The translations under genes were made by a program, and so were the position numbers. DNA of 64,000 bases, taken from NCBI GenBank assembly GCA_034440575.1, contig JAOTOL010001647.1, positions 2,354,001 through 2,418,000 of the forward strand, given 5' to 3'. The stretch comes from Imbricaverruca yamaguchii (lineage: Eukaryota > Arthropoda > Thecostraca > Neoverrucidae). Below are positions 16,944-44,381 of the stretch, in pieces. The notes beneath the pieces are model-generated. The model searched no databases and was not told the DNA's origin. It saw nothing but the letters and a program-made list of their open reading frames with translations. How positions within the stretch are numbered: the first letter of the stretch is position 1; each line of letters starts with the position of its first letter.

Positions 16944-17006
16944 ATGGGCGCCAAATGACCCTGCAGTCGGCGCGCCTTTAAACTCCCCAAAAATAAATAA
17001 ATAAAT
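16944..17006 (+). mobile_element. Micro-insert 1 of the 52-63-bp hairpin family, with TSD
   Basis: The insert begins ATGGGCGCC, contains AATGACCCTGCAGTCGGC, then GCGCGCC, then AAACTCCCC and an (AAAT)n-like tail. The flanks are CAGATCATGAA(A/C)GTT at 16,929-16,943 and 17,007-17,021, a 15-bp direct repeat with one difference. No tRNA-like head or Pol III box B is present. This is a complete insertion event of only 63 bp. Confidence 0.85.
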
Positions 17007-17021
17007 CAGATCATGAACGTT

Positions 17022-17792
17022 GAAAGTCTAGATTAGGTAGATCCGCCTTTCAAACAAGGGATGGCGACCGCCCAGATGATGAGTAATCGTCCTGACCAGG
17101 CACTATTGTACTAATCAGGGATAACATAGCAAGCGACCAAACGCGTTCGAAATGCTACTTCATGCTCAGCTCCGTTTGCGTCAACTCAGCTGTGTCCGCA
17201 ATGCTATTGGTGAATCTGTGTAAAACAATTCGGGATTCGTAGCATTTCCCGTTCATTATGTTCAAGTACCTTCTAGTCACTGTGGTATTGTACATAATTG
17301 CTGGAGCATGTTTGCTGCATTAATGCTTGAAGTGCATTTGGAGAGCCTGAGATGTTGGAGAGGGTGGACTTGTTTCAGGTTCAGGTGCTGACAGATGGCA
17401 GCTACACACTCTGCATATTGAAATGTCGAGCATTGCATCCAAAACGTATTGGCATAAACATGAACATGGCGTTAAGGGATGCTTGAACTCCATAACCGTG
17501 GCCACACCTTGAGTAATATTTCCGCTTTCCTGCTCTCCAGATATACTTGGAGCACCAATCTGGCTTATATTTAGATGCCATTTTTGCAAACGTGTAGACA
17601 CGCACATGCCGCTTGCATCGCCAACGTACAAAGTCAAGCTGCTGGTGTCGGTGCATGAAGTTAAATCAGGATCCTGGGCATTGAAGAAGCCGAGTCAGCT
17701 GAACAACGTGTCACAAAACACGTGTTTCACTTGATTGGCTTCTTCATCCAGCCGTGATGGATGTCGGAGCTCAGTGCACAGACGCTGAATGG
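17022..17792. other. No gene recognised
   Basis: AT-rich unique sequence. Two overlapping minus-strand frames of 84-105 codons have no recognisable domain. Confidence 0.4.
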
Positions 17793-17806
17793 CAGGCATA
17801 TATGTG

Positions 17807-17977
17807 GCGGTTGTTGGTTTTAGGACGTTGGTTGTTGTTGGTTGTTGTTGGTTGGATTGGCGTCGCCAATCTCTCACGCCGGTTGGTCGCGGGCGAAGAA
17901 TAGCCACATGTAAGACTCGAACCTACAACCTTTCGATTATGAGACGGGCAACTTACCCCTAGACTACTCGTTCTCCT
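17807..17977 (-). mobile_element. Val-like tRNA-derived SINE with TSD
   Basis: On the minus strand it begins near GAACGAGTAGTCTAGGGGTA (box A TAGTCTAGGGG) and carries box B GGTTCGAGTC. The core is CCCGCGACCAACCGGCGTGA. The 3' hairpin is largely lost and is replaced by a (CAAC)n-type tail. The flanks CAGGCA(T/A)ATATGTG at 17,793-17,806 and 17,978-17,991 form the target duplication. Confidence 0.88.
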
Positions 17978-17991
17978 CAGGCAAATATGTG

Positions 17992-18900
17992 CTGTCACAG
18001 CTTCACCTGGCGACTGTGGTCCACCCGCAGGGAAGCGCCCCGACCTGGTCGTGCCCGGGACTGCCCCGCGGCTGTCCCGGGGCACGACCTCTCGCCGGCT
18101 CCCGTGCCGACCTCTGCTCGACAGTTGTTCGGACCCAGCCGCCGGCTGCTCGTGACTGCTCAACACTCCCTCAGGACTGCCGGGGCCCCCTGTTCGCGAG
18201 CCCCGCTGGCGGCAATGCCTGGCGCAGTGTCGCGCCGGCGGCGATGTCTGGCGCAGTGTCGCGCCGGCGCCAGCGCCGACGCCGCAGACGCGACGGTGAC
18301 GGCGCGCCGGCGATAGGCGGCGTTTTTGGCGCGGTTGTCGGCCCGGCCGACCGGTGTATTCAATTAGGTATATCGGTGCATCGGCGTGTCGGCGGGTTTT
18401 TGTCGGCCGAGTTTTTGTCGGGGTCGCGTCGGGGGAGGGGCGTGCCGCGGCCGGGCCGCCTGCCGGCGCCGCGGCAGTGGCCGGATATGCCGGCACACGG
18501 GCCGCGCGACAGGTGACCGCCGACCGGGCGGCCAGAACCCACAGTCTCGCGTCAGCTGGCGCGTCCGAGAGGCGGCCCGGCACGGCAGCGGCGGCCTGAG
18601 GGAGCGTTGTGGGTCCGGTGCCCGGCTGGGGCTGGGTGTTTTCGCGACTTGTGACGCCGGGCGAAAGCAAATGTTCCGCTCTCACGACGATCGTTGACTG
18701 GAGTAGTGTAGTGCATGACGGTATTAACTTACCTTCACTCAAGCCGTACATAGTCAAGCGAGCAAATACTTTCGCTATGCATGAAATGATAAGTTGGGAA
18801 GTCTGCTCCAAGCAGCGTAAGGCCGGCTTTGAGACAAAACGCATGGGTACGTACCACACCCCTGTTAGCAAGTACGAGGTACCGTCTCCACACTAACAGA
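17992..18900. other. GC-rich non-coding block (densest ~18,000-18,660), no gene recognised
   Basis: CpG-dense sequence with imperfect short repeats such as CTGGCGCAGTGTCGCGCCGG (two copies at about 18,220-18,266) and TTTTTGTCGGCCGAG. Long frames exist on both strands but have only compositional features. A CpG island of an unseen gene is possible. Confidence 0.4.
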
Positions 18901-20100
18901 ACTCCCCTCGTGAAGTGACATGTGAATATCCACGGGGCTGGACAAGGCCCGCAGCAGCATTCTCCCTCTCCTCTTTCTCTCTCTCCCTCTCTCGCTCTGG
19001 TTTGTTATCAAGGAGCGAGGAGGGCCGTTCCATATATCACATCTTTTGCTTGCACCGCCGCCGACGGGTTTTCAGGGTGTTGGACCCCAATTGTGCGTAT
19101 GGAAACTTTCGTCATGATCAGTGCGACCTGCGGCCCCCACTGTAGCCGGAGGGCTGGGGAGTCAGATTCGGAGTGAGCGATCGGAATGGAACAACTCTGG
19201 TGGACTCATTAACATATGTATTTGCATGGCTGTGACAGTCCATGCACGGTGCCTTCAGCTGCTGTTTCTTCAAGTCAGGAGGTATTTAGAGTGTTCTTCT
19301 CCCCCTGCAGTACTAAACAAACAGCGCACAGTTACATCGAAGGTGTCTATGGTCTCCGATGTCCACAATATGCAGATAACTAGCGACCTAGAGTACATAA
19401 CGAAATGAATTAGTGCACACACATGGTCTTGAAAAATGCTTTACATTCGCTAGAACAGATGGAACGCCCCCCTACAGCATACGCCATCAGGAAGGGCCCC
19501 AGGTGGACCTTCGTCTGTTTGATCGACACACAAGTCGCGACAATCGCCTCTTGCACCTCTTGGGCAGGAGTTCCCACCAGCCACTTCTGATACGGTCTGC
19601 TGTGTGTGCGCATCCGTCATAACAAATGGGGAGAGTAAGCCCAGAGCCCAAGAGATATGCATGAAGTAGTGGTCCGTAAGTCATCCTGTGCAAGATTTCT
19701 CGCGGATGCAGAAGCGCTGTGGAGTTTCTTGCTTTTTATCAGAGAACTTTTGGACGCTGGCGAAGCCCTTACTATTTCCCCGGAAGCGGTAGATGTCACC
19801 TCATACTCGATACATTTAATATAATTCATCCGATGCAAACCGCTAAATCGAGCAGGCCGAGTCCTACTGATGCAACATGAAACGTTTGCGAGGATCCACA
19901 ATTCACACATATCTATGTTCGCTGGCGTCAGTTTGTGTACCGTGTACCGTTGGCACCAGTGTTTGCGTGTCCAGCACGGGCTGGCTCGGGGAGGGTGGGT
20001 CGGACGGGGCGGGGGGTGGAGGGCGAGGGGGAGGGGACACAGGTGCGGGCGAGAGCGCGACACGGGAGCGACATCGTCCTGATACAAGATCTGATGAGTG
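18901..20100. other. No gene recognised; CT-rich run at ~18,962-19,002
   Basis: Unique sequence with a TCTCTCTCCCTC run. No exon, RNA gene or transposon fragment could be supported. Confidence 0.4.
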
Positions 20101-20104
20101 CGGC

Positions 20105-20164
20105 ACGGACCGATAACGCCGGGCAGCTAATTGTCGTCGCCAGTTACCGGCTGATTAATGTGCG
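20105..20164. promoter_or_regulatory. Short TAAT-bearing unique segment abutting the 60-bp array
   Basis: GCAGCTAATTGTCG and GGCTGATTAATGTGCG are the only AT-core words here and lie immediately before the minisatellite. This is weak evidence for a homeodomain-responsive element. Confidence 0.2.
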
Positions 20165-20876
20165 CGCCCGATGGTGAGTCCATCAGCCACGCAGGGGCGC
20201 GCTCAGCGCAGGCTGCCGAGGGGGCGCCCGATGGTGAGTCCATCAGCCACGCAGGGGCGCGCTCAGCGCAGGCCGTCGAGGCGCCCGATGGTGAGTCCAT
20301 CAGGCAGGCGCGCTCAGCGCAGGCCGTCGAGGGGGCGCCCGATGGTGAGTCCATCAGCCACGCAGGGGCGCGCTCAGCGCAGGCCGTCGAGGGGCGCCCG
20401 ATGGTGAGTCCATCAGCCACGCAGGGCGCGCTCAGCGCAGGCCGTCGAGGGGCGCCCGATGGTGAGTCCATCAGCCAGCAGGGGCGCGCTCAGCGCAGGC
20501 CGCCGAGGGGCGCCCGATGGTGAGTCCATCAGCCACGCAGGGGCGCGCTCAGCGCAGGCCGTCGAGGGGGCGCCCGATGGTGAGTCCATCAGCCAGGCAG
20601 GGGCGCGCTCAGCGCAGGCCGCCGAGGGGGCGCCCGATGGTGAGTCCATCAGCCACGCAGGGGCGCGCTCAGCGCAGGCCGTCGAGGGGGCGCCCGATGG
20701 TGAGTCCATCAGCCACGCAGGGGCGCGCTCAGCGCAGGCCGTCGAGGGGGCGCCCGATGGTGAGTCCATCAGCCACGCAGGGGCGCGCTCAGCGCAGGCC
20801 GCCGAGGGGGCGCCCGATGGTGAGTCCATCAGCCACGCAGGGGCGCGCTCAGCGCAGGCTGCCGAGGGGGCGCCTA
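20165..20876. repeat. Minisatellite, 60-bp unit, ~12 copies
   Basis: Units contain CCGATGGTGAGTCCATCAGC, ACGCAGGGGCGCGCTCAGCG and CAGGCCGTCGAGGGGGCG. From about 20,500 the period is exactly 60. GATGG/CCATC and GCGC/GCGC give two small hairpins per unit. Because 60 is divisible by 3, stop-free frames of 20-residue repeats appear on both strands. Without a flanking gene structure they are not taken as coding. Confidence 0.95.
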
Positions 20877-21016
20877 GTGACGACACCAGGCGTATGGCAG
20901 GAAACACCGGTCGACCAGGAAGCAGGGAGTAGTCACACAAAAAAGAATATGGTAGTGTTGGCTTATTTCTGTAAAGCCACTATCATATCATGGAATCTCA
21001 ACTTATTTATATGTTG

Positions 21017-21177
21017 AGGACAAGTAGTGTAGGGGTAAGCTGCCCGTCTCACAATCGAAAGATTGTGGGTTCGAGTCTCACCTGTCGCTACTCTTCTCCC
21101 GCGGCCAATCGGCGTGAGAGATTGACGACGCTACATGACTCAACGGTCGACGTGTCGTAAAACCCGATGGCCAACTA
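21017..21177 (+). mobile_element. Val-like tRNA-derived SINE with short TSD
   Basis: The head carries GTAGTGTAGGGGTAAGC and GTGGGTTCGAGTCTCAC (anticodon loop CTCACAA, CAC = Val), then the core CCGCGGCCAATCGGCGTGAG. The 3' hairpin arms ACGAC/GTCGT differ from the GCGAC/GTCGC of the copy at 32,555, with both sides changed together. TATATGTTG flanks it at 21,008-21,016 and 21,178-21,186. Confidence 0.85.
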
Positions 21178-21186
21178 TATATGTTG

Positions 21187-22187
21187 GATGCCACGATACA
21201 GGATCGAAGTACTGACTTGTCAATGGAATTTACTCTGTCGGCGGTGCCATTCCAGGAGGTGGACGTGCAAGACCGGAGGAGAAGGAAGAACATACCTCGG
21301 CGCACCTGACAGCGGGGTGAGACAGATTAGAAGAGACAAAGTTGAAGTGAAAAAGCAGGCACGTGCCGTGCAGACAAGAGTCGGTCAGGGGATGGACTCA
21401 GGGGCAGTCCAGAGGCCAGAGAGTCGTGTTGAGAAGCGCACCGGGTAGTAAGGTGGAGAAAATACTGGCGCCCGGTGGGGCTAAGTCCAAGCGAGGAGAA
21501 CACGGACGGTCACGTGGTCTCGCAGCAGTGTAATTAAATAATGGTGTGCCTAACACCGCTCTATGAGTAGTTATCCATTTCCTTGGTTTTTCTTCTGGTG
21601 CTGTTTTGTTACTGACAAATTTATTCGCGTTCTTGGCATTTTATAATACATTGCATGTGCATCATATCTAGAGTAAGTGCTATTTTAATTTTGACTCTTA
21701 AACGTTATTGTTCATACACAACCGTGCCTCTCAAACGTTGCTGTTCATGCACAACCGTGACGCTTAAGCGTTGCTGCTCAAACGCGACTTGAGCCTGCGA
21801 CACTGCGAGCGAGATCGTTCGCAGTTGTTGACATCTTTTTCTTTGTGTCATCACCGTAATCTACGTAATTTTAGTGACGGCCATGTCGTAGTATGCTAAT
21901 TTTTAGAACTATATTTTGCAACCATGCATACAAATCCTGGCAGCCACATTGCGATGTTTTGCTAGCGAAGGAACTTTTATATACATACATATATATATAT
22001 ATGTATTTTACCTAGCATTAACCCCTCCTGTGTTGCAAGGCGTCAGACGATCATATAGTCTCAAATATTCGTTCCTGAGACAGAGGTGGATGTTGGTGCT
22101 GTTCACTTATGTACGAGGCGAAACTTAAATGAATTAATAAATAAAGACTGCACATGGGTACGTGCTGGTCGTCACCTTTGAACCCAA
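21187..22187. other. No gene recognised; short (TA)n at ~21,982-22,000
   Basis: AT-rich unique sequence with a twice-repeated motif around CTTAAACGTTGCTG-like words at 21,698-21,785. No coding exon was recognised. Confidence 0.45.
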
Positions 22188-22217
22188 GTGAAATATAAAC
22201 AGTCACGTCACATGCCT

Positions 22218-22285
22218 CTCATTCTCTCCCTTCTATTTTTTGTAGCTCTCTCTCTCCCTTCCTTTTCTCTCTCTCTCTCTATTTC

Positions 22286-22316
<31 letters not shown>

Positions 22317-22335
22317 CTCTTTCTCTTTCTCCGTT
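22218..22335. repeat. Polypyrimidine tract, (CTTT)n/(TCTC)n
   Basis: CT-only runs including five tandem TTTC units. The adjacent frame into the LINE fragment therefore starts with low-complexity residues. Confidence 0.9.
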
Positions 22336-22339
22336 TCGG

Positions 22340-23470
22340 CTTCAGTGTCCCCCTCCTGTCATGGGACGTCCAACCTGACCCATTTTCTAGCGATCATTTC
22401 CCAATTCACATCTCACTTAAACACACCTCCCACGCTACTGATTATTCATTTATGTCCCGCTGGAACGTCCGCAATGAAAAAGATAGACTTTCACCCGGAA
22501 AATTGATGCTGCCATCCCTCTCCAGTCTCACTTCCCACCCCCACCCGAATTTCGGCATTTCTCGATACAATGTCACTCGCGTGAGAAAAACACGTCCACC
22601 ATACTCGTCTCCCCCGCCGGCAATAGACATGTGCCGTGGTGGAACGACAAATGTCAGCGTGCCGTCGCCCTACGGCGGCACGCTGTAGGGCGACGGCACG
22701 CTGTAGGGCGACGGCACGCTGTAGGGCGACGGCATACGAAAATTTCGGAAATAGCTCGCAATACAAAACATATTCGATTGCTAATATAAGCTGTGCTGGC
22801 AACAATATTCCAATTCTTTCAACCAATTCACCCCCATCGGCCAAGTTTGGACACAAATTCGATTCATCTCCAATGGCTCCATTCTCCATGTTTTCCACCG
22901 CGCATTCCACTAAGTCACCAGTAACCAACGCCACATCACAGAGCCCGCAGCCGTTGTGGAACACTTCACCACTTATTACTGTGACATCTCCTCCAACACC
23001 CAGTACTCACAGGAAGCCGCCACATTTCTTCGCAACACTCTTACCTACCCCTTCTTAAACCCACAACTGTGACTGGCTCCGCCAACTCTGAACCCTACAA
23101 CGCCTCCTTTACCCCCTATGAACTGAACTTACCCCTCTCAAAGGTAACCAACACTGCTGTTGGCCCTAATCAATTTGCATGCCCCTTCTTTCAAAATCCC
23201 TCTGACTCCGGTAAAGATAGCCTCCTTTCGGCGCTAAATCAAATATGGACTGACGGTACTTTCAGCCCCATCTCTCTCACTAGTTGTGCTTGAAAAATCT
23301 TTGAGCGCATGGTCAATGGACGAATCTGAGTCTATCTTGAAAATAACAAAATGTTCTCCCTTTCAGAGTGGCTTTTCTCGCCCAGGAAAAGCACCGCGCT
23401 GGTAATCTGATCGAAATTATCGACTCAATCCATGGCCGATTCGCGAAAAATCGAAACTATCGCCCTTTTC
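22340..23470 (+). pseudogene. Degenerate Jockey-like non-LTR retrotransposon fragment (endonuclease end to early reverse transcriptase)
   Basis: Reading the plus strand across several frames gives pieces in the expected order. The endonuclease C-terminal motif SSDHFPIHISL is at about 22,395-22,425. A linker segment with VEHFTTYYCDISSNTQYSQE follows at about 22,956. Then come LSKVTNTAVGPNQF and SALNQIWTDGTFSPISLTSC at about 23,125-23,290, KIFERMVNGR near 23,300 and NLIEIIDSIHGRFAKN near 23,400. These are landmarks of Jockey-clade ORF2 between the endonuclease and the first reverse-transcriptase blocks. Stops, frame changes and an internal 18-bp tandem repeat show that it is dead, and the catalytic YxDD block is not present. 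Family assignment is from memory of conserved blocks. Confidence 0.75.
22672..22735. repeat. 18-bp tandem repeat (GTAGGGCGACGGCACGCT), ~3.5 copies
   Basis: Perfect 18-bp units lie inside the LINE remnant, and the preceding GTCGCCCTACGGCGGCACGC forms an inverted counterpart. It arose after the LINE decayed. Confidence 0.9.
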
Positions 23471-23570
23471 CTCAGCTTCTTTTAATGATGACAATTTTCG
23501 CACTAGCTTTCGTCTCACCGTTCCAGCGTCCCATCAAACAAGTGCTTAAATATAAATATTATTTAATATC

Positions 23571-24349
23571 CCCTGCCGATGTGTGGATGCGAACGCGGAA
23601 GCTATGGTTATCTGCGGATCTATTCTTAAAATACACAATTTTAGCCTACAACGCCATGTTCCAGGGCTTGCCATCTCTTCGTCAAGCTAATGATGAGTTG
23701 AATCTTCAGGCCGAGGTGTGGCTCCGCCGAGGTGCGCTACGGTGTGACATCAAAACATCGGGCAGAAAACGACCATGCGATGGAGCCACACCACCTAGGA
23801 ATCATAAAGTGTCACAGCCCGGGGCCTGACAAGCATGTGCCAGCGCGGCTGCCATACTGGAGCCGGAACTTGGGGCACCAGAAACCGACAGAACCGCCTG
23901 AGGCGGCAAACTCGACGCGCGGCTTCTCAGCCAATCAGAGCCGTGCACCGGTGATGACGTCACACCCAAACCGCAGTCATTAGGCTAGGTGTAGAGCGCT
24001 GTTGCTGTATCGCTGACAAAATCAATCACGATGAAAGCGGCAGATGACTCCGCCTTGTGGACTTAGGCCCGCCCCGCGCCGCTCAGCGCTGCGCCAGTCA
24101 TCCATCATCGGTGCCACAATCGCCGCGATCACTTGTTCTCTCTTTATCTGGCGCGCTCTTGTTTACGATCAACGAGCCATTCTCTATAGGGGCTAGTTGG
24201 TGATTGAGGACGTGCAGGTCCAAATGAGGAAGTCTGAGGAGTTGAGAGTCTCCAGCTGTGACACGTCGAGAGGGGAGACGTCGGTGGACCGCCAGCCGGT
24301 CTGTCACGTGACATGCATATGCAATGGTGAGACTTCTCGTTCGTCAGCT
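23571..24349. other. No gene recognised
   Basis: Unique sequence. The plus-strand frame through 23,368-23,829 continues beyond the LINE similarity but shows no reverse-transcriptase blocks there. Confidence 0.4.
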
Positions 24350-24361
24350 AGAGCCAGCCGA

Positions 24362-24419
24362 TTGGTTGGTTATTGGAGTTTATGGGCGCATCGACTACGT
24401 CGGTCATGTGGCGCCCACC
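24362..24419 (-). mobile_element. Micro-insert 2 of the hairpin family, minus orientation, with TSD
   Basis: Read on the minus strand, the insert starts GGTGGGCGCCACATGACC, then GTAGTCGATGCGCCC, then ATAAACTCCAATAACCAACC. Target duplication AGAGCCAGCCGA occurs at 24,350-24,361 and 24,420-24,431 (12 bp, perfect). Length is 58 bp. Confidence 0.88.
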
Positions 24420-24467
24420 AGAGCCAGCCGAAGCTGGTACGCCAAGTGGCATCCCCGCGCGAGCACA

Positions 24468-25168
24468 ATCATCACACTTCTGCTGCCCACAATCATCACA
24501 CATCTGCCGAGCACAATCATCACACCTCTGCCGAGCACAATCATCACACCTCTGCCGAGCACAATCGTCACACATCTGCCGAGCACAATCATCACACCCC
24601 TGCCGAGCACAATCATCACACCCCTGCCGAGCACAATCATCACACCCCTGCCGAGCACAATCATCACACCCCTGCCGAGCACAATCATCACACATCTGCC
24701 GAGCACAATCATCACACCTCTGCCGAGCACAATCATCACACATCTGCCGAGCACAATCATCACACCCCTGCCGAGCACAATCATCACACCTCTGCCGAGC
24801 ACAATCATCACACATCTGCCGAGCACAATCATCACACCCCTGCCGAGCACAGTCGTCACACATCTGCCGAGCACAATCATCACACCCCTGCCGAGCACAA
24901 TAATCACACCTCTGCCGAACACAATCATCACACCCCTGCCGAGCACAATCATCACACCCCTGCCGAGCACAATCATCACACCCCTGCCGAGCACAATCAT
25001 CACACATCTGCCGAGCACAATCGTCACACCTCTGCCTCGCACAATCATCACACATCTGCCGAGCACAAATCATCACACCCCTGCTGCCCACAATCATCAC
25101 ACCTCTGCTGCCCACAATCATCACACCTCTGCTGCCCACAATCATCACACCTCTGCCGAGCACGGTAG
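24468..25168. repeat. Minisatellite, 24-bp unit, ~29 copies
   Basis: CACAATCATCACACCTCTGC plus CGAG, with ACCTCT, ACATCT and ACCCCT variants. The last four units switch to a TGCTGCCCACAATCAT type. Because 24 is divisible by 3 the array is open in most frames (His-rich and Cys-rich readings), with no support as a gene. Confidence 0.96.
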
Positions 25169-25630
25169 CACTCGCCGTAGGCCGTGAGCCATCAACGTCC
25201 CTGTTGCCCATGGCTCTGGGACAGAAAATACCATAAACGGGTACGCGTATTTCATTATCCGTGTATTTTCAATATAAAATTCGAACCGAATAGCTACAAA
25301 TCACACTTCATGTGCCCCACAAAAAGGGTGCTTTAGTGTTGCAAGAGAAAAGAACAACCGTCCTCCAATATTGTATAGCTTGTGCGTTTTGCTGACGCCG
25401 AAATCTATTTGCAGCCATGTTGGTGCATAGGAGTTGGCGAGAGATCAGTGCAGCGCAACATCGGCTGGAGTTGGAATGAAATGACAGGTGTACTGGCGCG
25501 AAAAGCCATACAGTTCAGTACAAATTACGGCATAGTCTACATTTCAGAAGGTTCAATATTTTCCTTGATGTTATTTTTGCCCTCATCGTTTTCAGTTCAG
25601 CATGTGTAGCTGGCTGCACAACAATAGCTG
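25169..25630. other. No gene recognised
   Basis: AT-rich unique sequence between the 24-bp array and a possible tRNA-like segment. Confidence 0.4.
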
Positions 25631-25663
25631 GGTTCCTGCTGGAAGCAGTATGAACGTCGGTTT

Positions 25664-25745
25664 CTTTGGTGCCTCGATGGCGCGGTCGGCTAATGCGTTC
25701 CTTTTGAGCGTCGGAGGCCATTGATTGAGGTCTGACCACGGGCAT
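25664..25745 (+). mobile_element. Possible degraded tRNA-like (SINE head) segment
   Basis: CCTCGATGGCGCGGTCGGCT resembles a tRNA acceptor/D-arm with a box A, followed by GCGTTCCTTTTGAGCGTCGG, an anticodon-arm-like hairpin. The expected box B is degraded (GATTGAGGTCT). No core or tail matching the other SINEs is visible. Confidence 0.3.
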
Positions 25746-25996
25746 ACTGTTTCTAATCGGCTCTTACCCAGGACATTGCAGCATCTGGGGAGTGTTGGCC
25801 TGTGCCATTATGTGAACGCTGACCGACCAGTGCCCGCGGCATCGTCTTCACATACATGACCTGCCATGACCTGCCATGACCCGAACACATTACCGGGTCC
25901 GGTGGCGCGCCCCGAGGGCACGACCTCGCCTCGTGTCACCATGTCACCGGAACAGCTCCCTGTTCACTGAGTCTATAACCCGGGACAGCCGCGTAG

Positions 25997-26190
25997 TGTG
26001 CACAGCCTACCACGGCGGGGAACTCCGAGACAGAACGGGATGATAATGCTGTGCACAACCTACTACGGCGGGGAACTCCGAGACAGAACGGGATTTTAAT
26101 GCTGTGCACAACCTACCACGGCGGGGAACTCCGAGACAGAACGGGATGATAATGCTGTGCACAACCTACTACGGTGGGAAGCTCCAGACC
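25997..26190. repeat. 53-bp tandem repeat, ~3.5 copies
   Basis: CCTACYACGGCGGGGAACTC starts at 26,006, 26,059, 26,112 and 26,165 (exact 53-bp period). Units differ at a few sites such as GATGATAATG versus GATTTTAATG. Confidence 0.94.
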
Positions 26191-27119: not shown

Positions 27120-27237
<118 letters not shown>

Positions 27238-28130: not shown

Positions 28131-28132
28131 CG

Positions 28133-29825: not shown

Positions 29826-30372
29826 TGTCTGTCATGCCGCCTGTACACATGAAGAGCCTCCAATATCGACCTGTCATGCCGCCTGTGCGCATGAAGAGCC
29901 TCCAATATCGACCTGTCATGCCGCCTGTACACATGAAGAGCCTCCAATATCGACCTGTCATGCCGCCTGTACACATGAAGAGCCTCCAATATCGACCTGT
30001 CATGCCGCCTGTACACATGAAGAGCCTCCAATATCGACCTGTCATGCCGCCTGTGCGCACGGAAAGCCTCCAATATCGACCTGTCATGCCGCCTGTTCAT
30101 GAAGAGCCAATATCGACCTGTCATGCCGCCTGTACCGGAAAGCCTCAATATCGACCTGTCATGCCGCCTTCACGGAAAGCCTCCAATATCGACCTGTCAT
30201 CGCCTGTACCACGGAAAGCCTCCAATTGACCTGTCATGCCGCCTGTACACATGAAGAGCCTCCAATATCGACCTGTCATGCCGCCTGTACACATGGAGGG
30301 GGCGGGGGAGTGGCGCATCGACTGCCGTGGTCATGCAGCTGCCTGTACACATGAAGAGCCTCCAATATCGAC
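29826..30372. repeat. Minisatellite, 42-bp unit, ~12 copies, degenerate toward the right
   Basis: CCTCCAATATCGACCTGTCA then TGCCGCCTGTACACATGAAG. The first six units are near-identical, later ones carry deletions. TCATG and CATGA flank an 11-nt loop in each unit. Because 42 is divisible by 3, long repetitive frames occur on both strands without other coding evidence. Confidence 0.95.
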
Positions 30373-32554: not shown

Positions 32555-32711
32555 GGGACGAGTAGTCTAGGGGTAAGTTGCTCGTCTCACAGTCGAAAGG
32601 TTGTAGGTTCGAGTCTCACCTGTCGCTACTCTTCGCCCGCGACCAATCGGCGTGAGAGATTGGCGACGCTACATGACTCGATGGTCGCTGTGTCGCAAAA
32701 CCAATAGCCAA
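32555..32711 (+). mobile_element. Val-like tRNA-derived SINE, full-length, perfect 15-bp TSD
   Basis: Starts GGGACGAGTAGTCTAGGGGT (box A), with box B GGTTCGAGTCT. The core stem is CCAATC (32,643-32,648) with GATTGG (32,658-32,663). The 3' hairpin arms are GCGAC (32,663-32,667) and GTCGC (32,92 of the following line, about 32,692-32,696), then AAAACCAATAGCCAA. CCCTTTACCAGTCGG occurs at 32,540-32,554 and 32,712-32,726. This is the best intact copy in the window. Confidence 0.93.
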
Positions 32712-32972
32712 CCCTTTACCAGTCGGCAGTGGTGCTGCCAGAAACAATATACTCTTTCAAAGACTCAAAGCTCGCTTATATCCTGTGAAAAAAGCATTTA
32801 ATGATGTCAAAAGGAAGTGCTCTAAAAACAATTGTCATTAAGTGTTGGGCTCGACTCAAATTTTAACATTTCAGTGCACTATGTCAAGCACATTGGGTGC
32901 CATAATTGAGGATAATTTTGGAATGAGCCGTCATAGACCTGGCATTTTTAGCCCTTTAAGTGATGAATACCG

Positions 32973-34590: not shown

Positions 34591-34595
34591 ACCCG

Positions 34596-34744
34596 GCTTT
34601 AGGAGAAAATTGGGTTATTTTACGACGCCAACCTTTCACGCCGATTGGTCACGGGTGGACTCGGCAAAGCCGCCGGTTGTGAGATTCGAACCCACAATCT
34701 TGCGATCAAGAGTCAGACGATCTACCAGCTGAGCTACCGCGGCC
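34596..34744 (-). mobile_element. Lys-like tRNA-derived SINE, 3' hairpin deleted
   Basis: On the minus strand the head GCCGCGGTAGCTCAGCTGGT (intact box A) is followed by an anticodon loop CTCTTGA (CTT = Lys) and box B GGTTCGAATC. The core is GACCAATCGGCGTGAAAGG. The sequence then passes directly from TTGGCG to TCGTAAAATAACCC, so most of the 3' hairpin seen in the copy at 14,622 is missing. No clear target duplication was found. Confidence 0.85.
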
Positions 34745-35914: not shown

Positions 35915-35917
35915 GCG

Positions 35918-36392
35918 GGCCCGGGCGGAGGGGGCAGGCGACAACCGGCCCGGGCGGAGGGGGCAGACGACAACCGGCCCGGGCGGAGGGGGCAGGCGAC
36001 AACCGGCCCGGGCGGAGGGGGCAGACGACAACCGGCCCGGGCGGAGGGGGCAGACGACAACCGGCCCGGGCGGAGGGGGCAGACGACAACCGGCCCGGGC
36101 GGAGGGGGCAGGCGACAACCGGCCCGGGCGGAGGGGGCAGGCGACAACCGGCCCGGGCGGAGAGGGCAGGCGACAACCGGCCCGGGCGGAGGGGGCAGGC
36201 GACAACCGGCCCGGACGGAGGGGGCAGACGACAACCGGCCCGGGCGGAGGGGGCAGGCGACAACCGGCCCGGGCGGAGGGGGCAGGCGACAACCGGCCCG
36301 GGCGGAGGGGGCAGACGACAACCGGCCCGGGCGGAGGGGGCAGGCGACAACCGGCCCGGACGGAGGGGGCAGACGACAACCGGCCGCAGCCT
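35918..36392. repeat. Minisatellite, 29-bp unit, ~16 copies
   Basis: ACAACCGGCCCGGGCGGAGG plus GGGCAGGCG, with a G/A alternation (GCAGGCG or GCAGACG) that gives two unit types in mosaic order. Six long frames, up to 354 codons, cross it on both strands because the units lack stops. Confidence 0.96.
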
Positions 36393-36882
36393 CTGTCGCG
36401 GCCGGCGCCACCATCGCTGACCGGTAATCGGCTCAGCGCCGGTTTTGTCTCGCTGCTCGCCGGGCCAGATGTAGGAGCCGCGCTGCGGTCGGCGGCGGTG
36501 TGGAACTTGCACTGGGCAGTCGTCCACGCGCCGGCAGCCGGCCGTACGGTGCAGCCGCGCTGTCGCTCCGAGGCGGGACTGGCTCTCGGCTGTGTCTGAC
36601 CGGCTGGTGGATGTAGGGGGAGTGGGGATGGGGTGGTGGTGGTGGGAGGGGGGTGCGAGGTTAGATGGGCGGAGGTTGTGAAGAGGGTGGATGGATGCGT
36701 TGCATTGCATCCTGCCACACCAATGCATTAGAGTGGCTATGTGGACGCAGAGGTGCGTTGGATGGACACAGTAGGCCCATCGTTCTCCCAAAGATGAGGT
36801 GCTAATTGGGAGAAAGGGATTTCAGTGGATACTGGCCGGACAATGCGCAAAAAAGAATATCTATTATCCATAATTAAATCAC
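36393..36882. other. GC-rich to AT-rich transition, G-rich tract at ~36,617-36,655
   Basis: Includes a GGGGTGGTGGTGGTGGGAGG tract. No gene is recognised. Confidence 0.45.
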
Positions 36883-36893
36883 CAATCGAAGGA

Positions 36894-36949
36894 GTTGGTT
36901 ATTTGGCTTTAGGGGCGTATCGACTGCTTCGGTAGAACAGCGTTCATAT
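36894..36949 (-). mobile_element. Micro-insert 3 of the hairpin family, minus orientation, with TSD
   Basis: On the minus strand it reads ATATGAACGCTGTTCTACCG, then AAGCAGTCGATACGCCCC, then TAAAGCCAAATAACCAAC. Target duplication CAATCGAAGGA occurs at 36,883-36,893 and 36,950-36,960 (11 bp, perfect). It aligns end to end with micro-insert 4. The left arm has changed to GAACGC. Confidence 0.85.
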
Positions 36950-36960
36950 CAATCGAAGGA

Positions 36961-37760
36961 AGTAGTTATCTAATTCAATTAGTAATTCAAGTACTTCAGT
37001 TATCCAAATGCATCCCACCAGGCAACTCGCATTTACTGCATTTGGAAGCAACAACTGAAACCCGTATGTCTCGAACCGTACTCACATTGATGCTGTCATA
37101 AGGATAGCACCTCTGTGCTTCAAAATTCCAAGTACGGAGTAATCTTTGTTTAATGAATGAAACTACCACACTCTCAGATCGGCGCGAAGTTCGCCGCTTC
37201 TTGGAGTTGATAAAATCAGCCTTTCGCAGAACCTACTCCGATTGAAGCTTTTCAAAATAGCACCATGAAAGGCAATATATAGCGTCTTTTCGTAAGGTTT
37301 TATCATTATTGAGATGTTTTGCACCAACCACAATAAAAGAAAATGTTCGGTTTGGCATGGTTGACGAAAGTAAAGCAACACAAGTAAAATATGGGAGACA
37401 AAATGTACGCATGAACGCTGGCTTCATTACTCCAAAATATTCACTGGTTCCTTCATATGGAGTTCGCAACACGAATTAAATCCCATATCAACGAAACTCA
37501 TTGCATTTAATTTTATCCCGTGACGTATATTGTTTCAGAATCATTGGCACCAACAGTCATGTGCCAATATAACAGGAAAAATGCATACAATGCCTTTATC
37601 AAACCATGTGATTGTGGGGAGGGAAGCGCTTCATGGAAGCCAGTCAGCGCGACCCACCGGGTTGCTGCACATTGCACACCGAGATACACTGATCAAACTT
37701 TGGGCGCAAGTTTGGTCAAGTCCTAATCAATCTTTTGAAGGAAGATATACACTTCTGTAA
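36961..37760. other. No gene recognised
   Basis: AT-rich unique sequence. No domain was seen in the short frames. Confidence 0.4.
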
Positions 37761-37774
37761 CGCATGTAGAAGGT

Positions 37775-37959
37775 TTGTTTTTGTTTGTTTATTGGTTGGT
37801 TGACGACACACTTTATGCACATCCACGGATAATGGCGTCGCCCACACTGTTTCGCCGGTGGGTCGCGGGATTTGGAAATGTCCTGAGTGGCGTCAGAGTC
37901 GAACCCGGGACTTTTGGTACCCATAGCCCGACACCTTAACCACTCGACCATCCCCGCCC
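37775..37959 (-). mobile_element. Third SINE type (class-II-tRNA-like head) with perfect 14-bp TSD
   Basis: On the minus strand the head GGGGATGGTCGAGTGGTTAA (box A TGGTCGAGTGG) leads to box B GGGTTCGACTCTGAC. The core is CCCGCGACCCACCGGCG with stem CCCAC/GTGGG. The 3' hairpin has outer arms GCGAC/GTCGT and inner arms ATCC/GGAT, then AACCAACCAATAAACAAAC. CGCATGTAGAAGGT flanks it at 37,761-37,774 and 37,960-37,973. The head resembles a Ser/Leu-type tRNA only in its 5' half. Confidence 0.9.
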
Positions 37960-37973
37960 CGCATGTAGAAGGT

Positions 37974-39530
37974 ACACCTCTTACAAAAGAGTAGTCATGC
38001 AAAAATGTACCCACTCATTGCCTATGCCTACCAGATATTACGCCTGCCGTGATGTTGCAAGTCCACGTATTATGCACTCCAACTTCAATACTGAATAGTT
38101 AAACCAACACTGCGCTTATGAGGTCTTAGGCCAAATTGTTGGGCCAACATGAACCCTCTCTGAGCGGCTACAAACCGTCGCATTACCCCCTGACCAGATC
38201 GAGCAGAGGCGTTCCAAAGTTCGAGCCGCCATCGTTCGGGTACATGCCGTGTTTGCCACCCATGCCCACCAAATTGGCTCCTTGTTTATGTCTGAATCAA
38301 CTTAGTTCATTAATTTGAGCCGAAACTGACACGAAAATAGTCCCTCCTCGTCGACGAGTGCATTGACGACACAATTTTCACGAGAAAAGTTATTGCAAAC
38401 GACCGAGCTGAATCCGCTTCCTCGTATCACCAGTCGAACCGATTTTGTACTCAGAGCGCCTTCAAAAGGTCTTATGCACGTGCACGGAGCCCCGCCCCTT
38501 CCCCACCCCGAAAACGACGCGAGACACCGTTGGACCAGAATCCAGGTGATCCAACCCGGATGGAGACAACTCATCAAGAAGTGCTCAATGTGGGTAGGAT
38601 TCGGCCACTGGGGGATATCAGTCTGGGCTGAGAATAATTGTCTCTTCTGAAACAGGAGGCAGACATTTTGATTCTTGCTATGCTCGTATTTACATAAGAG
38701 CAGCGGTGCCGCTGGTGCTGTTGTGTTCAAAAGTGCTCCCGGAGCCTCACTTCGCCCCCCCCCCCTACTGGAGCTCCGGGGAATTCCTTCAGAGGATCGC
38801 ATATGATTGAAGATTCACATGAAAATCCCTCCTCGAACGCATTTCCCATGTCTTCCAGACTCCGGACCCATCCCTGCAGAGGAGAGGGGGTGCGCAGATG
38901 GTAAGCTTCTTCCTTCAAACTTTTGACAACCGGTCATTTGATTGGATATTGGGTGGGGGTGCATATTTAGCATAAACAAGGGATAAGGTTTTTGTTGTCT
39001 TTGAAGTGGATCCTACAAGTCATATCTGAAGAACGAGGCCGAAGGTCAGGCAGCAGTACCATCTTTAACTCAAAACCTCTAATATAAATGTTCACTGCAC
39101 CAATTTAACACAGGACGTGGCCCCTGTTTCCAAATTTGTTAATCGACAACTGTCCATCTGTCTCCGCCCCTGCTCTTATGCCCATGCTTTATCCCTAATG
39201 TGCTATCCATTGGAGTCGAGTAGTGCATAGTGCATGAAACCCACCACGCAATGACCTCTACAAACTACCTACGGCTGGACCTCTGGCCACGGTGAAGCTG
39301 TAGATCTGCCGGTGCACGAGTGACCCGGATTCTAAGCGCATGTCAACGCAGCAGTCACCAGACGACCGGACTTGACCCGTACGTGGGGTCCAGGGCAGTC
39401 CTCCCTGGATGGGTACGACCATACATGATCTGGTCTGGCATACTGGAACGGAGGCACAGTACGACGAACAATCGTCCACTGGGAAGTTCTTCTGAGGGAC
39501 TCGGCAGAACTCAGCCGGATCGTCCCACTT
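37974..39530. other. No gene recognised
   Basis: Unique sequence with a C homopolymer at about 38,756-38,764. Frames on both strands around 38,300-38,800 show no domain. Confidence 0.4.
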
Positions 39531-39534
39531 CTGA

Positions 39535-39682
39535 ACATCTTAACAACGTCTCACTTATGAACACCTTAATAACGTACCACTTCTGAACACCCTAATAACG
39601 TCCCACTCTGAACGTCTTAATAACGTCCCACTTCTGAACACCTCAACAACGTCGCACTTCTGATCACCTTAACAACGTCGTG
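39535..39682. repeat. Degenerate ~26-29-bp tandem repeat, ~5-6 copies
   Basis: Words CACTTCTGAACACC, TTAATAACGT and CAACAACGTC recur at about 26-29-bp spacing. Confidence 0.85.
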
Positions 39683-39690
39683 TGGCAGAG

Positions 39691-41955
39691 TTTCCAGTTC
39701 TTGTTCTTTCACTCAGAATTAGACCCGATCTCTGAACTATGGTTTTAGCAGTTTTTACTACACCGTCAGCTCTGAAGTGCGTGAAGTTTTGTTCAAAGAG
39801 CACGTTCTCTGGCGGCAGCTGCCCGGAGTCAGCTGACTGTCGCCTACTGAGCGCTCGCCGGCCACGTGGTTACGTCGTCATGCCGCATGCCCGAGGCCGG
39901 GCGACCGCATTGCTGCTGTCAGTCCGACGGAGTGTGCCGCGCTGAACGGCTGTACGTGTCGTAAGCTGAGCGAGAAGTCAGCTGGATAAAAGGACAGCAA
40001 TACAGTCCGGCACCTATGCTAATTCAAAAAATTCGACATAGTGCGTTCACGTTTAAGATACCATATTTGGCTGATAGGCTGACTTTTGGCAAGATTGCAA
40101 CCAATTTTGGCCGAAGTAGATTGGCGTTTTCCTCAACGTCCGTATGCTGAACATGAATTACTTATTTTCCGCAGTTGGCCCCTCTCCCAAACATCGAGCG
40201 CGCATCCAGAATATGAGTACGCCTCGCCGGATGGGTCAAAATGGCGGAAGTTACTTAATTCTGAAATTGCTGCATGGCTCAACATTTCACTGGAAATGAC
40301 ATTACGACTCAACATTTTTTTTTCGGGAGATAGGTCTATCGATAAACCCATAGGTTCATCCTCATCAATAAGTTTATCTTCGTATCCCTTTGGAGAGTCA
40401 CGAGCTCGCCCACGAACAATTTCTTTACATACATTTCCGCTTCCGTTCTAGGGATGCCATATTATATTCATGCTAGGAGGCCATTTCCATCGCATTGTTA
40501 TTTGTTCCAAGACACATTGATTTGATATGGAATCCAATTGAGTTTCTCCTTCTCGCAATGCGTAGGAAGCCCACAACTAACATGTGCTTCTCCACCCCTC
40601 TAGTCGATTTCTTAGCACATCACCCGTGCCACTATCATCATGCTCGCCATGGAAATGCAATGATCGCGCTATTTATTTATTAGGGCTTTAGGGAATGATC
40701 GCGCTATCAAAGCGTACTAGCATAGGCGTACTCGCGACCGTTCTCTGCCGCACCTAAGTACAATGAGACAATAAACATGTGGACCTCTTTTGATTAAGCA
40801 GCATCAGGATGGCTTCTTCACACATGGGGACTGGAAGGTAGCATTCGGTACTGCAAAGTACTCGGGAGTGATTTGATCTTGGATGATGCTTTGATCGAAT
40901 ATCCTCACGGTGGTGGGGTCTTCAGGCAGTGGTGCAGGGAGGTTGGCGACGAATGTCTCCCCACATTCCGACTGAGTTTCAGGTAATTAACACGGACGAA
41001 GCATTTCCTTTATCCTTGGAAATTGGAGGAATGTTCAATTATTGAATATGATGGCGGCAGGCTCCGGCGCTTCGGCTTAGTCACTAACTCTGTGCCAATT
41101 ACTTCATCGATGCGATGATCAATGCCAGCTCTTCTATTGCAACGGGTTCGCGCGGTCCCACACACAAGGCGTGCCGTACAGAAACCCTCTGCATAAGAGC
41201 ACGCTTCCTCGCAGCTCGTAGGCCGTATTTGTCGCAAAGAGAACGGCAGACAGGTCGTTCATGTGTATGTGTACTAAATACTGTCATACGGGCCGCATAC
41301 ACTAAGATGTTCTAGTGTCACGTAATTAGGTGCGGGGTTTCAATGTGCAGCACCGATGGAGTCTACTACATAACACAGTGTACCTGATGATCACAGTATC
41401 CACAGTAACACAGTATCCTGATGATCAGTTTTATGTCGGCTAAGTTTTACGTTCTGAGGGATGGGGTGTAAGTAAGTAATTGACCAAACCCTCGTTGAAG
41501 GTTATTGTGTTTACCTGCAGTTGCTACTGGTTTATCTGCCCATCGGCTAACACAGAAACTGTCGGCACACGGGGATAACACTGCAGATGTGTCTGTCAAG
41601 TTCATGGATTTCTCGGACATTCAAGGGACCTCGTGATTGTTTGATCCCGTTGACATTGTTTGTCCTCCTAAACCCATAGACACGCCCACGACAGGTGCCG
41701 TTAGCCTGTGCTTGCTGGTACGGGACGAAGGACCGATGAACTGGCTACGTTTCGCGACAGACATAGTGGTCGTGCATCACGAGCTACCGCTGGCTGGGCC
41801 GGCTCGATCGGCCACGGATGTGCCAAGTATAGCTCAAAGTTGCTATGTTTCTGCACTGGAACGATCCGACTCGGCTTTTCCCCGAGGTATTTTCTACATT
41901 CAGTGCAACGAGCCTGAGGTGGGGCAACGTTTTCATTTGCACATCGTGAAGTTGT
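39691..41955. other. No gene recognised
   Basis: About 2.3 kb of unique sequence. The 121-codon plus frame at 40,086 and 141-codon plus frame at 41,637 have no recognised domains or splice context. Confidence 0.4.
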
Positions 41956-41969
41956 TGACACTACAAAAC

Positions 41970-42042
41970 AACCGTCACCGAAAACAACCGACCAACCAAC
42001 CGAACCAACCAACCGAACACCCAACTGAACCGCAACCGAAAG
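41970..42042. repeat. (AACCG/AACC)n microsatellite-like tract
   Basis: ACCGACCAACCAACCGAACC and related units. It resembles the AACC tails of the SINEs, but no SINE body is recognisable immediately upstream. Confidence 0.75.
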
Positions 42043-44126
42043 CAATGCGAATCGTGCGCTGAGCAGACAACGAGGCTCATCATGCATGCAGGCAGAATGC
42101 TCGTCTATAGAGGGCTTTTGGCTCCGTAGAAATTCGCACGGATGTGATTGACAGATCTTGGGTCTCGGATCTCGCCCGACAAAACGAGTCGGCAGAGTTA
42201 GGCTGTTCTGAACGGGCCGAACAAGAACCGGACCGCTCCGAGTACGGCCGAAACGAACCCCTACCAACATTTACGAGATTTAACATTAGACCTATGATAG
42301 ATACGCCATGGAATGAAACCATCTAAGTTAACTTTTGGTTTCGGCAAATTTAAACTGCTCAAATCAGCCCGGGAAATAATGGATACACGTTTCAGAGCCA
42401 TAGGTAACGCCAGCATTTAAATCTGGCAAATATTGCGAGATGCCTTTGAGTAGTTCTTTACGCTACACCATCGATGGAGCATAGGGTGCAGGAATTAATG
42501 CTTGAAGCCAGACTTTCACACTCCATAATGGAAACTTCAATGTGACATTTTACATGATCTTACCACCTTCTACCTGAATTTCACATGATTAGTCTTCGTT
42601 CTCCATGACGAATGGGAACACATAAGATTGCAAATAACAAACTAGGTGAACAAGAAATGTGTAGATGAGATGCCAGTGATCCTCGCGTTGTACCATCGCA
42701 AGAACCACCTTCGAGAGCAAGTAAGCCACACTCACAATGCCACCCGAACAAAGCACCACCAACTTGCTGCCCTGCGAAACCAAAACCATGCGAAATATGC
42801 GAAAAACTGTAGCCATACGCACCAATTGTTGCGATTTTCGGCTGATTTTAGCACCGTCACTGACACAGCGGACGCTCGTCCCGACACCCAAGCACCGACT
42901 GAAGGCCCCTCGCCTCCACACACGTCTCACAGATGGCAGCACCACGCTCGGCGCGTTCGGAGGCGGAGCTAGCAGTCAGACGCCAATCGTTGAGGGCAAG
43001 GCGGAGCTACTCCACGCCAACGAACAGTAAGCCCCGCCCCCTGCGATGCGCGAGCTGCTCAGATGCAGACGATATCCAGGAGCGAAGAATGGCTGGTTGT
43101 CCAGAAGGCTTCCCGTGTTGATGACAAGGTACAGCCGTCAACCTGCTTCCCGTTAATTCACGACTATTTAAATGTCAGGGTGGATGGTCGACGCAGGGGG
43201 CGTCGTCACCTCGTGTGACGAAAGCTTGCAACGATGCGAGGTGCGAAGTGGTGAGCTTCTTCCCGAGTGGTGATTTAAATACAGCAGAGGCGCAATTCGG
43301 GCGGCTGTGTCCTGTCAGCCAAAGCGCAGTTCCTCGAACAACACAGAACCAAAGGTCTGCGTTGTTTGTATTGTGCCTTCAACTCTGACGTGGGACCGTC
43401 ATTATTGCATCATCTTGTATGAGCGTCTCGGGTTTATCGGCCAATGAAATCACTTGCAATATATCCATTGAGATAAGCCAGGACACGCAGTGACGATCAC
43501 AATTTACCAACAACAGCAAAAGGGTGAGAACAAATTGAGTCCATTTTTAACGGCACTAGTCCTGATGGCGAAACGATTGTTTATTTGACGTGCCATATGA
43601 GACACTAATCAAGCAAGGGTACTGGTAGCGAGCAGACTAAACGGAGCAATGGTAATTAAACACTGAGGTACTTCAGTGGCTTGGAGTTCAGCGACTAACA
43701 CACGCAAGCTAACATAGGGCCACTTGCGCTGGCTGCTTATTTAATGTCTTGAAAAATTGGAACATGATGCGTTTGCTTGTGCTTTTTCGGCCGATGGTTT
43801 TCTGCTCGCTTGTTCTACTTTCGCTAGTGGTGCTTTTCAGTCGGTGCTTTCCCCATAGACTACCACAAATAGGAAAACAGAATGGACTGGCTGTTGGTAG
43901 AGGGAAAAGTGTTTGAAATTGAATCTCTGTATTTTTCTGACACCAAATGATTTACTTTTGTTCGCACACTTTTTAGATATTCAGGAGGCCCTGCAGCCGG
44001 CGCCGCTGGGCCGCTGCTAAAGGCGGCGACCGCGCTGGCCATCGCAGTGATGACGTTACGTGCTTATTGCTCGCATTGGTGCCGACACGGATACTATCGG
44101 AATGCCGAGGGATATGCCGCCGACTG
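42043..44126. other. No gene recognised
   Basis: Unique sequence, GC-richer at about 42,890-43,050 and 43,980-44,050. No supported exon or RNA gene. Confidence 0.4.
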
Positions 44127-44139
44127 GCACTGCCTCTCA

Positions 44140-44192
44140 ATGGGCGCTGTATGACCGAAGCAGTCGAAGCGCCCCTAAGCCCAAATAACTAA
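44140..44192 (+). mobile_element. Micro-insert 4 of the hairpin family, with TSD
   Basis: ATGGGCGCTGTATGACCGAA, then GCAGTCGAAGCGCCCC, then TAAGCCCAAATAACTAA. Perfect 6-bp outer arms GGGCGC/GCGCCC, and inner TGAC/GTCG with one wobble. Target duplication GCACTG(C/T)CTCTCA occurs at 44,127-44,139 and 44,193-44,205. Length is 53 bp. Confidence 0.88.
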
Positions 44193-44329
44193 GCACTGTC
44201 TCTCAGCAGGTCAAGGTGGTTTGGCCTGTGGATGTTTACATTCGTTAGATATTTCTGTGTAAAGTAGAGGTAACTGAAGACACGGAAACGAGATGGATGA
44301 TCACGTTGGCGCGGTAAGGTATCAAATGT

Positions 44330-44381
44330 ATGGGCGCAAAATGACCCTTGATGTCGACGCGCCCCTAAACTCCAATGCACC
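44330..44381 (+). mobile_element. Micro-insert 5 of the hairpin family, with perfect 14-bp TSD
   Basis: ATGGGCGCAAAATGACCC, then TTGATGTCGACGCGCCCC, then TAAACTCCAATGCACC. Target duplication AAGGTATCAAATGT occurs at 44,316-44,329 and 44,382-44,395. Length is 52 bp. It lies 137 bp from micro-insert 4 in the same orientation but in a different target, so it is an independent event. Confidence 0.9.

What the first reader, a model, noticed from the sequence alone, without database searches (positions are those of the whole stretch)
16944..44381. A family of 52-63-bp retroposed micro-inserts with target-site duplications
Five inserts (16,944-17,006; 24,362-24,419 minus; 36,894-36,949 minus; 44,140-44,192; 44,330-44,381) are each bounded by an 11-15-bp direct repeat, and all begin at or within a few bases of the same point, (A/G)TGGGCGC or its decayed form ATGAACGC. 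The shared body is a GGGCGC arm, ATGACC, AGTCGA, a GCGCCC arm, TAAACYCCAA and an AATAACCAACC-type tail. There is no tRNA-like head and no box B. Random 5' truncation would give varied starts; here the starts agree. I know of no described retroposon family this short with a fixed 5' end, although I could not search. Either a 55-nt RNA is itself mobilised or a longer parent is copied only as far as its terminal hairpin.
Basis: partly seen in the sequence, partly recalled or inferred. Interest (0 to 1): 0.88.

Follow-up and report, generated by a model that had tools for sequence, protein, structure and literature searches.

The report
LINE copies cut short at hairpin
Short inserts of about 55 bases, probably thousands of them in this animal genome (perhaps a barnacle), are the last scraps of a much longer jumping gene, most of them starting at nearly the same base, the edge of the RNA hairpin that its copying enzyme is thought to grip, which makes the old question of why such copies come out truncated unusually easy to test.

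Summary
In detail: all five inserts lie between 11-16-bp duplications (0 of 3,622 random flank pairs reach the weakest score). They are not an orphan family. The hairpin has 22,643 genome matches (up to 3 mismatches, 0 in the reversed control). Of 99 complete hairpins examined, 54 are stubs, 40 run on upstream through ...GTTA|TGGGCGC into a LINE 3' end, 5 are unclear. Hairpin plus (TAAC/CCAA)n tail is that LINE's 3' end, and a tRNA-derived SINE in the window shares it, as in stringent-type LINE/SINE pairs. In two samples chosen by tail and last hairpin bases, 70 of 103 independent insertions start at the hairpin's 5' edge, 21 inside it, 12 further up the LINE. So the fixed start is real but not absolute. 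SINE copies with an intact hairpin do not stop there (0 of 20). I think most stubs were copied from LINE RNA already trimmed back to the hairpin (inferred). Termination of the reverse transcriptase there is the main rival, and an independently mobile 55-nt RNA is not excluded. New variant of a known kind.

The parts
16944..17006 (+). LINE 3' stub, hairpin variant with (AAAT)n tail; duplications 16928-16943 and about 17006-17021
   Evidence: (E 1.1e-11)
24362..24419 (-). LINE 3' stub; 12-bp duplications at 24420-24431 and 24350-24361
   Evidence: (E 9.6e-20)
36894..36949 (-). LINE 3' stub with decayed 5' arm (ATGAACGC); 11-bp duplications at 36950-36960 and 36883-36893
   Evidence: (E 6.4e-13)
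44140..44192 (+). LINE 3' stub, TGT/GAAGC/A subtype; duplications 44127-44139 and 44193-44205
   Evidence: (E 7e-20)
44330..44381 (+). LINE 3' stub, AAA subtype; 14-bp duplications 44316-44329 and 44382-44395
   Evidence: (E 5.7e-15)
40672..40693 (-). 22-bp insert (CCC plus TAAAGCCCTAATAAATAAA), start inside the 3' arm of the hairpin; 14-bp duplication ATAGCGCGATCATT
   Evidence: (E 0.017)
21018..21176 (+). tRNA-derived SINE whose 3' end (21125-21176) matches the LINE hairpin and tail model
   Evidence: E 6.9e-5
32555..32713 (+). tRNA-derived SINE; 3' end 32663-32713 matches the model
   Evidence: E 7.3e-5
50409..50567 (+). tRNA-derived SINE; 3' end 50517-50567 matches the model
   Evidence: E 1.4e-5
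14645..14792 (-). tRNA-derived SINE of a second subtype; Rfam tRNA head 14720-14792, hairpin 14645-14682 (weak match); paralogous empty site for the stub in L026
   Evidence: (E 0.019)
34671..34743 (-). tRNA-like head of another SINE copy
17860..17975 (-). SINE copy with altered 3' end

Best explanation
The inserts are 3'-end stubs of a LINE whose 3' terminus is a stem-loop (GGGCGC...GCGCCC with an inner GAC:GTC stem) followed by a short-repeat tail, which by analogy with stringent-type LINEs is the site its reverse transcriptase recognises. Each stub is a separate target-primed insertion (shown: duplications, an empty site, parent sequence). cDNA synthesis starts in the tail and in most events ends at the first unpaired base before the hairpin or one base further (shown from the copies). 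Inferred: most of these events used LINE RNA whose 5' part was already gone, trimmed back to the hairpin, probably because the hairpin or the enzyme sitting on it blocks 5'-to-3' decay; the enzyme ran off the end, sometimes adding a few extra bases. The starts inside the hairpin are then cuts in its loops or stops of the enzyme in structured RNA.
For: Parent: 40 of 99 complete hairpins continue upstream, mostly as ...GTTA|TGGGCGC, and the ones read run into ORFs with an RNase H domain; 54 are stubs by my reading, 5 unclear. Fixed edge: 48 of 64 and 22 of 39 independent insertions in two tail-selected samples. Made repeatedly from LINE RNA: 8 of 34 hairpin variants occur in both forms, among them all six seen four or more times. 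Insertion: modal duplication 14 bp; empty site of the L026 stub in SINE paralogs. Template-end reading: SINE copies with an intact hairpin do not stop there (20 of 20 carry the body; 17 of 18; Fisher p 6e-10 for hairpin-selected copies of both kinds). In one search all six two-base extras before TGGGCGC are CA, CA, CA, GA, CT or AA; none is the LINE's own TA (one three-base extra is ATA).
Against: Starts inside the hairpin (9 of 64; 12 of 39), with a cluster near AGTCGAT, can equally be read as enzyme stops. The SINE hairpin differs in sequence and has a weaker stem, and that the SINE uses this same enzyme is inferred. Duplicate SINE loci were not removed from the Fisher test, and the other test (70 of 103 against 0 of 20, p 4e-9) compares samples chosen differently. 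The single base before TGGGCGC is mostly A (10 of 13), which is also the LINE's own base. The LINE-extended share differs between two sister subtypes: 53 of 660 versus 94 of 236, which no single production rate explains without differences in retention, segmental duplication or age. There are no RNA data here.
Confidence: 0.55

Rival explanations
1. Enzyme-stop model: the template is intact LINE RNA, and the reverse transcriptase, tightly bound to the hairpin, usually lets go when it has copied just past it (an abortive start, like failed promoter escape).
For: Starts also occur inside the hairpin, near AGTCGAT and at the outer 3' arm (window 40672-40693). The edge is where the presumed bound element ends. 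LINE-extended copies with a clear duplication start at scattered points (8, 49, about 491, 1,139 nt upstream; another at 8).
Against: SINE copies sharing the 3' end show no such stops (0 of 20). Stopping just after the hairpin has been unwound is not where a structural block is expected. Two-base extras at the junction do not match the LINE template.
Confidence: 0.28
2. A 55-nt hairpin RNA is a discrete, independently made transcript or processing product that is itself mobilised, a minimal SINE without a promoter inside it.
For: The fixed 5' end; in one subtype 607 of 660 exact copies lack the LINE's upstream GTTA (some of these may be LINE copies with a mutated GTTA); SINE RNAs do not give stubs.
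Against: No Rfam tRNA-like match in the window's stubs, so no recognised internal promoter. The commoner LINE subtypes each have their own stubs, which a single stub lineage would not give. Starts inside the hairpin.
Confidence: 0.12
3. Ordinary random 5' truncation, with the stubs looking uniform only because they are short.
For: 5'-truncated copies are common in LINEs such as recent human and chimpanzee L1 (52.9% in PMC2912911, passages read).
Against: 70 of 103 independent starts fall at one edge, nearly all of these within about two bases, while other starts are scattered.
Confidence: 0.02
4. Small DNA transposons (MITE-like) rather than retroposed copies.
For: The hairpin is an inverted repeat.
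Against: Duplications vary in length (9 to 21 as scored), the 3' end is a variable short-repeat tail, and many copies continue into a LINE.
Confidence: 0.01

Closest known systems
Stringent-type LINE/SINE pairs: eel UnaL2/UnaSINE1, zebrafish ZfL2 (PMC5135761, passages read)
   Same: 3' stem-loop plus, in UnaL2, a short tandem-repeat tail, shared with a SINE; recognition of the stem-loop by the LINE protein is reported there.
   Different: Here the hairpin is also the point where most insertions end; hairpin sequence, tail repeat and the RNase H-bearing LINE differ. The passages read mention no such truncation point for UnaL2 or ZfL2.
5'-truncated LINE copies (human L1, PMC2912911, passages read)
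   Same: 3'-anchored copies of a LINE flanked by target-site duplications.
   Different: L1 truncation points are spread (recalled); here one edge takes about two thirds of sampled events and lies about 55 bp from the end.
RNase H-bearing LINEs; best named protein hits are Amphibalanus amphitrite, a barnacle
   Same: 56% identity to the best (unnamed) hit, 52-53% to the two named barnacle proteins, over the RNase H region and C-terminus; weaker named hits in a psyllid, a beetle and a spider.
   Different: Clade not determined here; I saw no report of stubs in the paper listings.
Tailless retropseudogenes and template-jump chimeras (PMC5322556 and PMC2104539, seen in search listings only)
   Same: Short or composite products of LINE machinery.
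   Different: Those are copies of cellular RNAs or chimeras; these are the LINE's own 3' end with a preferred start.

Membership tests
Stringent-type LINE 3' end | stem-loop at the 3' terminus | tested here: met
   98.3% of cells paired; fold -16 kcal/mol, z -2.62. Copies were chosen by a pattern that includes both stems, so the pairing is not independent evidence
Stringent-type LINE 3' end | short tandem-repeat tail | tested here: met
   TAAC, CCAA, ATC or AAAT repeats by copy
Stringent-type LINE 3' end | 3' end shared with a SINE | tested here: met
   a model built without SINEs finds three SINE 3' ends in the window at E 1.4e-5 to 7.3e-5 and a fourth at 0.019
Stringent-type LINE 3' end | reverse transcriptase requires the hairpin | not testable with these tools
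   needs biochemistry
5'-truncated LINE copy | sequence colinear with the LINE 3' end | tested here: met
5'-truncated LINE copy | target-site duplication and empty site | tested here: met
   empty site shown by paralogy for L026
5'-truncated LINE copy | 5' ends spread along the element | tested here: not met
   70 of 103 at one edge; so a variant, not a typical case
SINE | internal RNA polymerase III promoter or RNA-derived head | tested here: not met
   Rfam matches in the window only at 14720-14792 and 34671-34743, none in the stubs; the whole insert is hairpin plus tail
SINE | family history independent of the LINE | tested here: inconclusive
   one search shows shared variants; searches show unequal LINE-extended shares
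MITE | terminal inverted repeats with fixed-length duplication | tested here: not met

The most novel reading that the evidence does not exclude
A discrete hairpin RNA of about 55 nt, cut out of or protected from LINE messages, is itself a regular retrotransposition template, in effect the smallest SINE-like parasite: no head, no promoter, only the recognition hairpin and tail, with more than ten thousand copies (extrapolated from 54 of 99 and 22,643).
Probability: 0.2. Interest if true: 0.85.

Novelty: new variant of a known kind. Interest (0 to 1): 0.57.

Why it matters
Why LINE copies are truncated (enzyme falling off, or template already broken) is a long-standing question. Here truncation is focused on one edge of the presumed recognition hairpin, in very many natural insertions, with a SINE sharing the 3' end as an internal contrast. 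Whichever model holds, the stub starts give a near base-resolution read-out of the start of target-primed reverse transcription. The stubs also matter for repeat annotation: inserts of 22-63 bp probably escape most repeat libraries (my expectation), are found inside other repeats and appear to have seeded a tandem array.

Tried and rejected
Rejected: random truncation, MITE, tRNA or other known small-RNA head (Rfam on the window), chance duplications. A first pattern without the correct spacing found little above background (445 matches against 349 in the control) and was dropped. Covariation: one double change in the inner stem; the alternative pairing of columns 8-10 with 20-22 pairs in only 67% of cells and is left open; neither is used as evidence. 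I looked at whether starts inside the hairpin fall in loops or stems; by eye this did not decide between models. Ten window ORFs had no Pfam hit. The organism was not settled: the LINE's best named hits are from a barnacle; Pollicipes pollicipes (770 Mb, GC 52.3%, over 92% of it in 17 large scaffolds, PMC8917513, passages read) seems to have a different scaffold layout; a COX1 search did not complete. Ten literature searches showed no report of such stubs in their listings; most subscription papers are not held. One search was a misframed translation without use.
Full report
The finding. All five inserts are present with the reported boundaries and duplications. A control using both flanks from one place failed because the window is full of minisatellites (93 to 373 of 4,000 random places reach the observed scores). 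Pairing flanks from places at least 3 kb apart gives 0 of 3,622 at the weakest observed score.

The genome. The window lies in a 767-Mb assembly of 1,430 contigs. The corrected hairpin pattern has 22,643 matches at up to three mismatches and none in the reversed control. I fetched 90 of the roughly 100 places listed, all exact matches. After removing hits with identical neighbourhoods and adding bystanders in the longer loci there were 99 complete hairpins (89 exact, 10 with one to three mismatches). A scripted duplication search gave 56 stubs, 38 LINE-extended and 5 unclear. I moved L040 and L046 (position 4505) to LINE-extended, because their duplication or homology lies upstream: 54, 40 and 5 (L024, two halves of the double hairpin L037, L086, L098). 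A few of the 54 have 4 to 15 nt of filler between duplication and hairpin (for example L066, L085), and some duplications in tandem repeats are ambiguous.

The parent. LINE-extended copies mostly share ...GTTA|TGGGCGC and, where read, run into reading frames with an RNase H domain (Pfam E 2.1e-8 and 1.5e-10 for two of them) and a C-terminus with a CCHC-like motif (my reading). The best named protein hits are from the barnacle Amphibalanus amphitrite, 52-53% identical, so the source is perhaps a barnacle; species and LINE clade were not settled. LINE-extended copies with a clear duplication start 8, 49, about 491 and 1,139 nt upstream of the hairpin; for most others no clear duplication was found within the fetched stretch, which was only 300 nt for half of the 40.

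Subtypes. The hairpin has three variable stretches, giving 34 combinations among the 99 (under an earlier classification of 40 LINE, 43 stub, 16 unclear). Eight combinations occur both as stubs and as LINE-extended copies, among them all six seen four or more times: 7 and 6, 6 and 2, 8 and 3, 3 and 5, 4 and 3, 1 and 3 (stub first). The other 26 were seen at most three times and in one form or unclear. Stubs are therefore made from several LINE lineages.

Start points without presupposing the whole hairpin. I searched only the last six hairpin bases plus tail. Tail 1 has 1,114 exact copies. The first 80 were fetched and collapse to 65 groups by flank similarity, 64 after I merged L129 with L148. 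Of these 48 start at the edge, 9 inside the hairpin and 7 are LINE-extended (scripted as 49, 9, 7; by hand I moved L176 to the edge and L126 inside, and dropped L129). Of the 48, three have long filler by the script (L134, L162, L186), and L154 and L191 have no clear duplication. Tail 2 has 930 exact copies. From the first 46 listed I fetched 39 (a 40th stretch was a tandem array), skipping 7 seen before (five stubs, two LINE-extended). The 39 are independent by flank: 22 edge, 12 inside, 5 LINE-extended, one of the latter starting only 8 nt upstream (hand classification; L219, L226 and L209 lack a clear duplication). Inside starts cluster near AGTCGAT but also fall in the 5' arm. The window has an extreme case, a 22-bp insert at 40672-40693.

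The edge in numbers. In one search, of 45 edge events with a duplication, 20 begin at or after the T, 13 have one extra base (A in 10, T in 3), 6 have two (CA three times, GA, CT, AA) and 6 have three or more (one of them ATA). The LINE would supply A, then TA, then TTA. So one further base may be templated, but the second is not, with ATA as a possible exception. In the 99-set the two-base extras are AG, CC, a CA that an ungapped reading removes (L039), and a TA in the LINE copy L040.

The SINE contrast. The window's tRNA-derived SINEs have a 3' end that the LINE-only covariance model recognises (three at E 1.4e-5 to 7.3e-5, one at 0.019). The SINE hairpin has 16,315 genome matches. The first 20 listed were fetched: 20 of 20 carry the SINE body at least 50 nt upstream; some are duplicates of each other (L103, L104, L109; L106, L107). 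In DNA fetched for other reasons 17 of 18 carry it; the exception, L025, has no clear duplication. Against the hairpin-selected LINE set (54 of 94) the difference is p 6e-10 (duplicates not removed). If both use the same enzyme, stopping at a hairpin edge is not intrinsic to the enzyme; this favours a difference in template, such as LINE messages being trimmed while SINE RNAs are not. The sequence difference between the two hairpins is a real weakness of this argument, and SINE copies truncated inside the hairpin were not looked for.

A result against a simple reading. For two sister subtypes differing at one base, exact copies carrying the LINE's GTTA are 53 of 660 and 94 of 236. Part of the second figure seems to be duplicated LINE arrays (contigs C452, C665). 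Either retention or age differs, or stubs of the first subtype were amplified on their own. This keeps the independent-RNA reading alive.

Empty site. The stub in L026 sits in a SINE. With one duplication copy removed and flanks joined, the sequence aligns across the junction to the window SINE at 14705-14628, 88% over 82 bp with one gap.

Known systems. A stem-loop plus short-repeat tail shared with a SINE is described for stringent-type LINEs such as UnaL2 (PMC5135761, passages). 5'-truncated copies make up 52.9% of the human- and chimpanzee-specific L1 insertions counted in PMC2912911, while 80.5% of Alu insertions are full length (passages). What is new here, as far as ten literature searches could show, is the concentration of truncation at the hairpin edge.

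The second pass changed counts and wording (variants in both forms, RNase H E-values, sampling of tail 2, the extra-base list, the list of unanswered calls).

Noticed in passing
L199 (G000 contig C754, 143090-143520): Tandem array with 51-bp units made of a stub whose 5' arm has become the complement of its 3' arm, next to a stub-like sequence in the opposite orientation; looks like a head-to-head double insertion that was then tandemly amplified.
   Followed up: partly
window 29829-30343: The 42-bp minisatellite unit and the sequence beside it (30312-30343, minus) resemble the hairpin (ATGACC/AGTCGA motifs, E 3e-5); a stub may have seeded the array.
   Followed up: no
L120, L157, L159, L171, L172, L177, L181, L182, L189: One stub insertion shared by nine loci with the same flanks, carried along in a repeated unit.
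   Followed up: partly
L037 and L162: Double or partial hairpins at the 5' end of stubs (hairpin without tail joined to a second hairpin; filler made of hairpin 5' pieces), suggesting template switching.
   Followed up: no
L066, L085, L134: Stubs with 12 to 22 nt of filler between the duplication and the hairpin; the filler in L085 contains a tail-like TAACCAA.
   Followed up: no
G000 contig C665, 14860-23449: Five LINE 3' ends of one subtype spaced about 2.14 kb, apparently a tandem LINE array.
   Followed up: no
window, whole: About 28 minisatellite arrays (units of 12-60 bp, many GC-rich) in 64 kb by my count; no Pfam hit among the ten low-redundancy reading frames tried.
   Followed up: no
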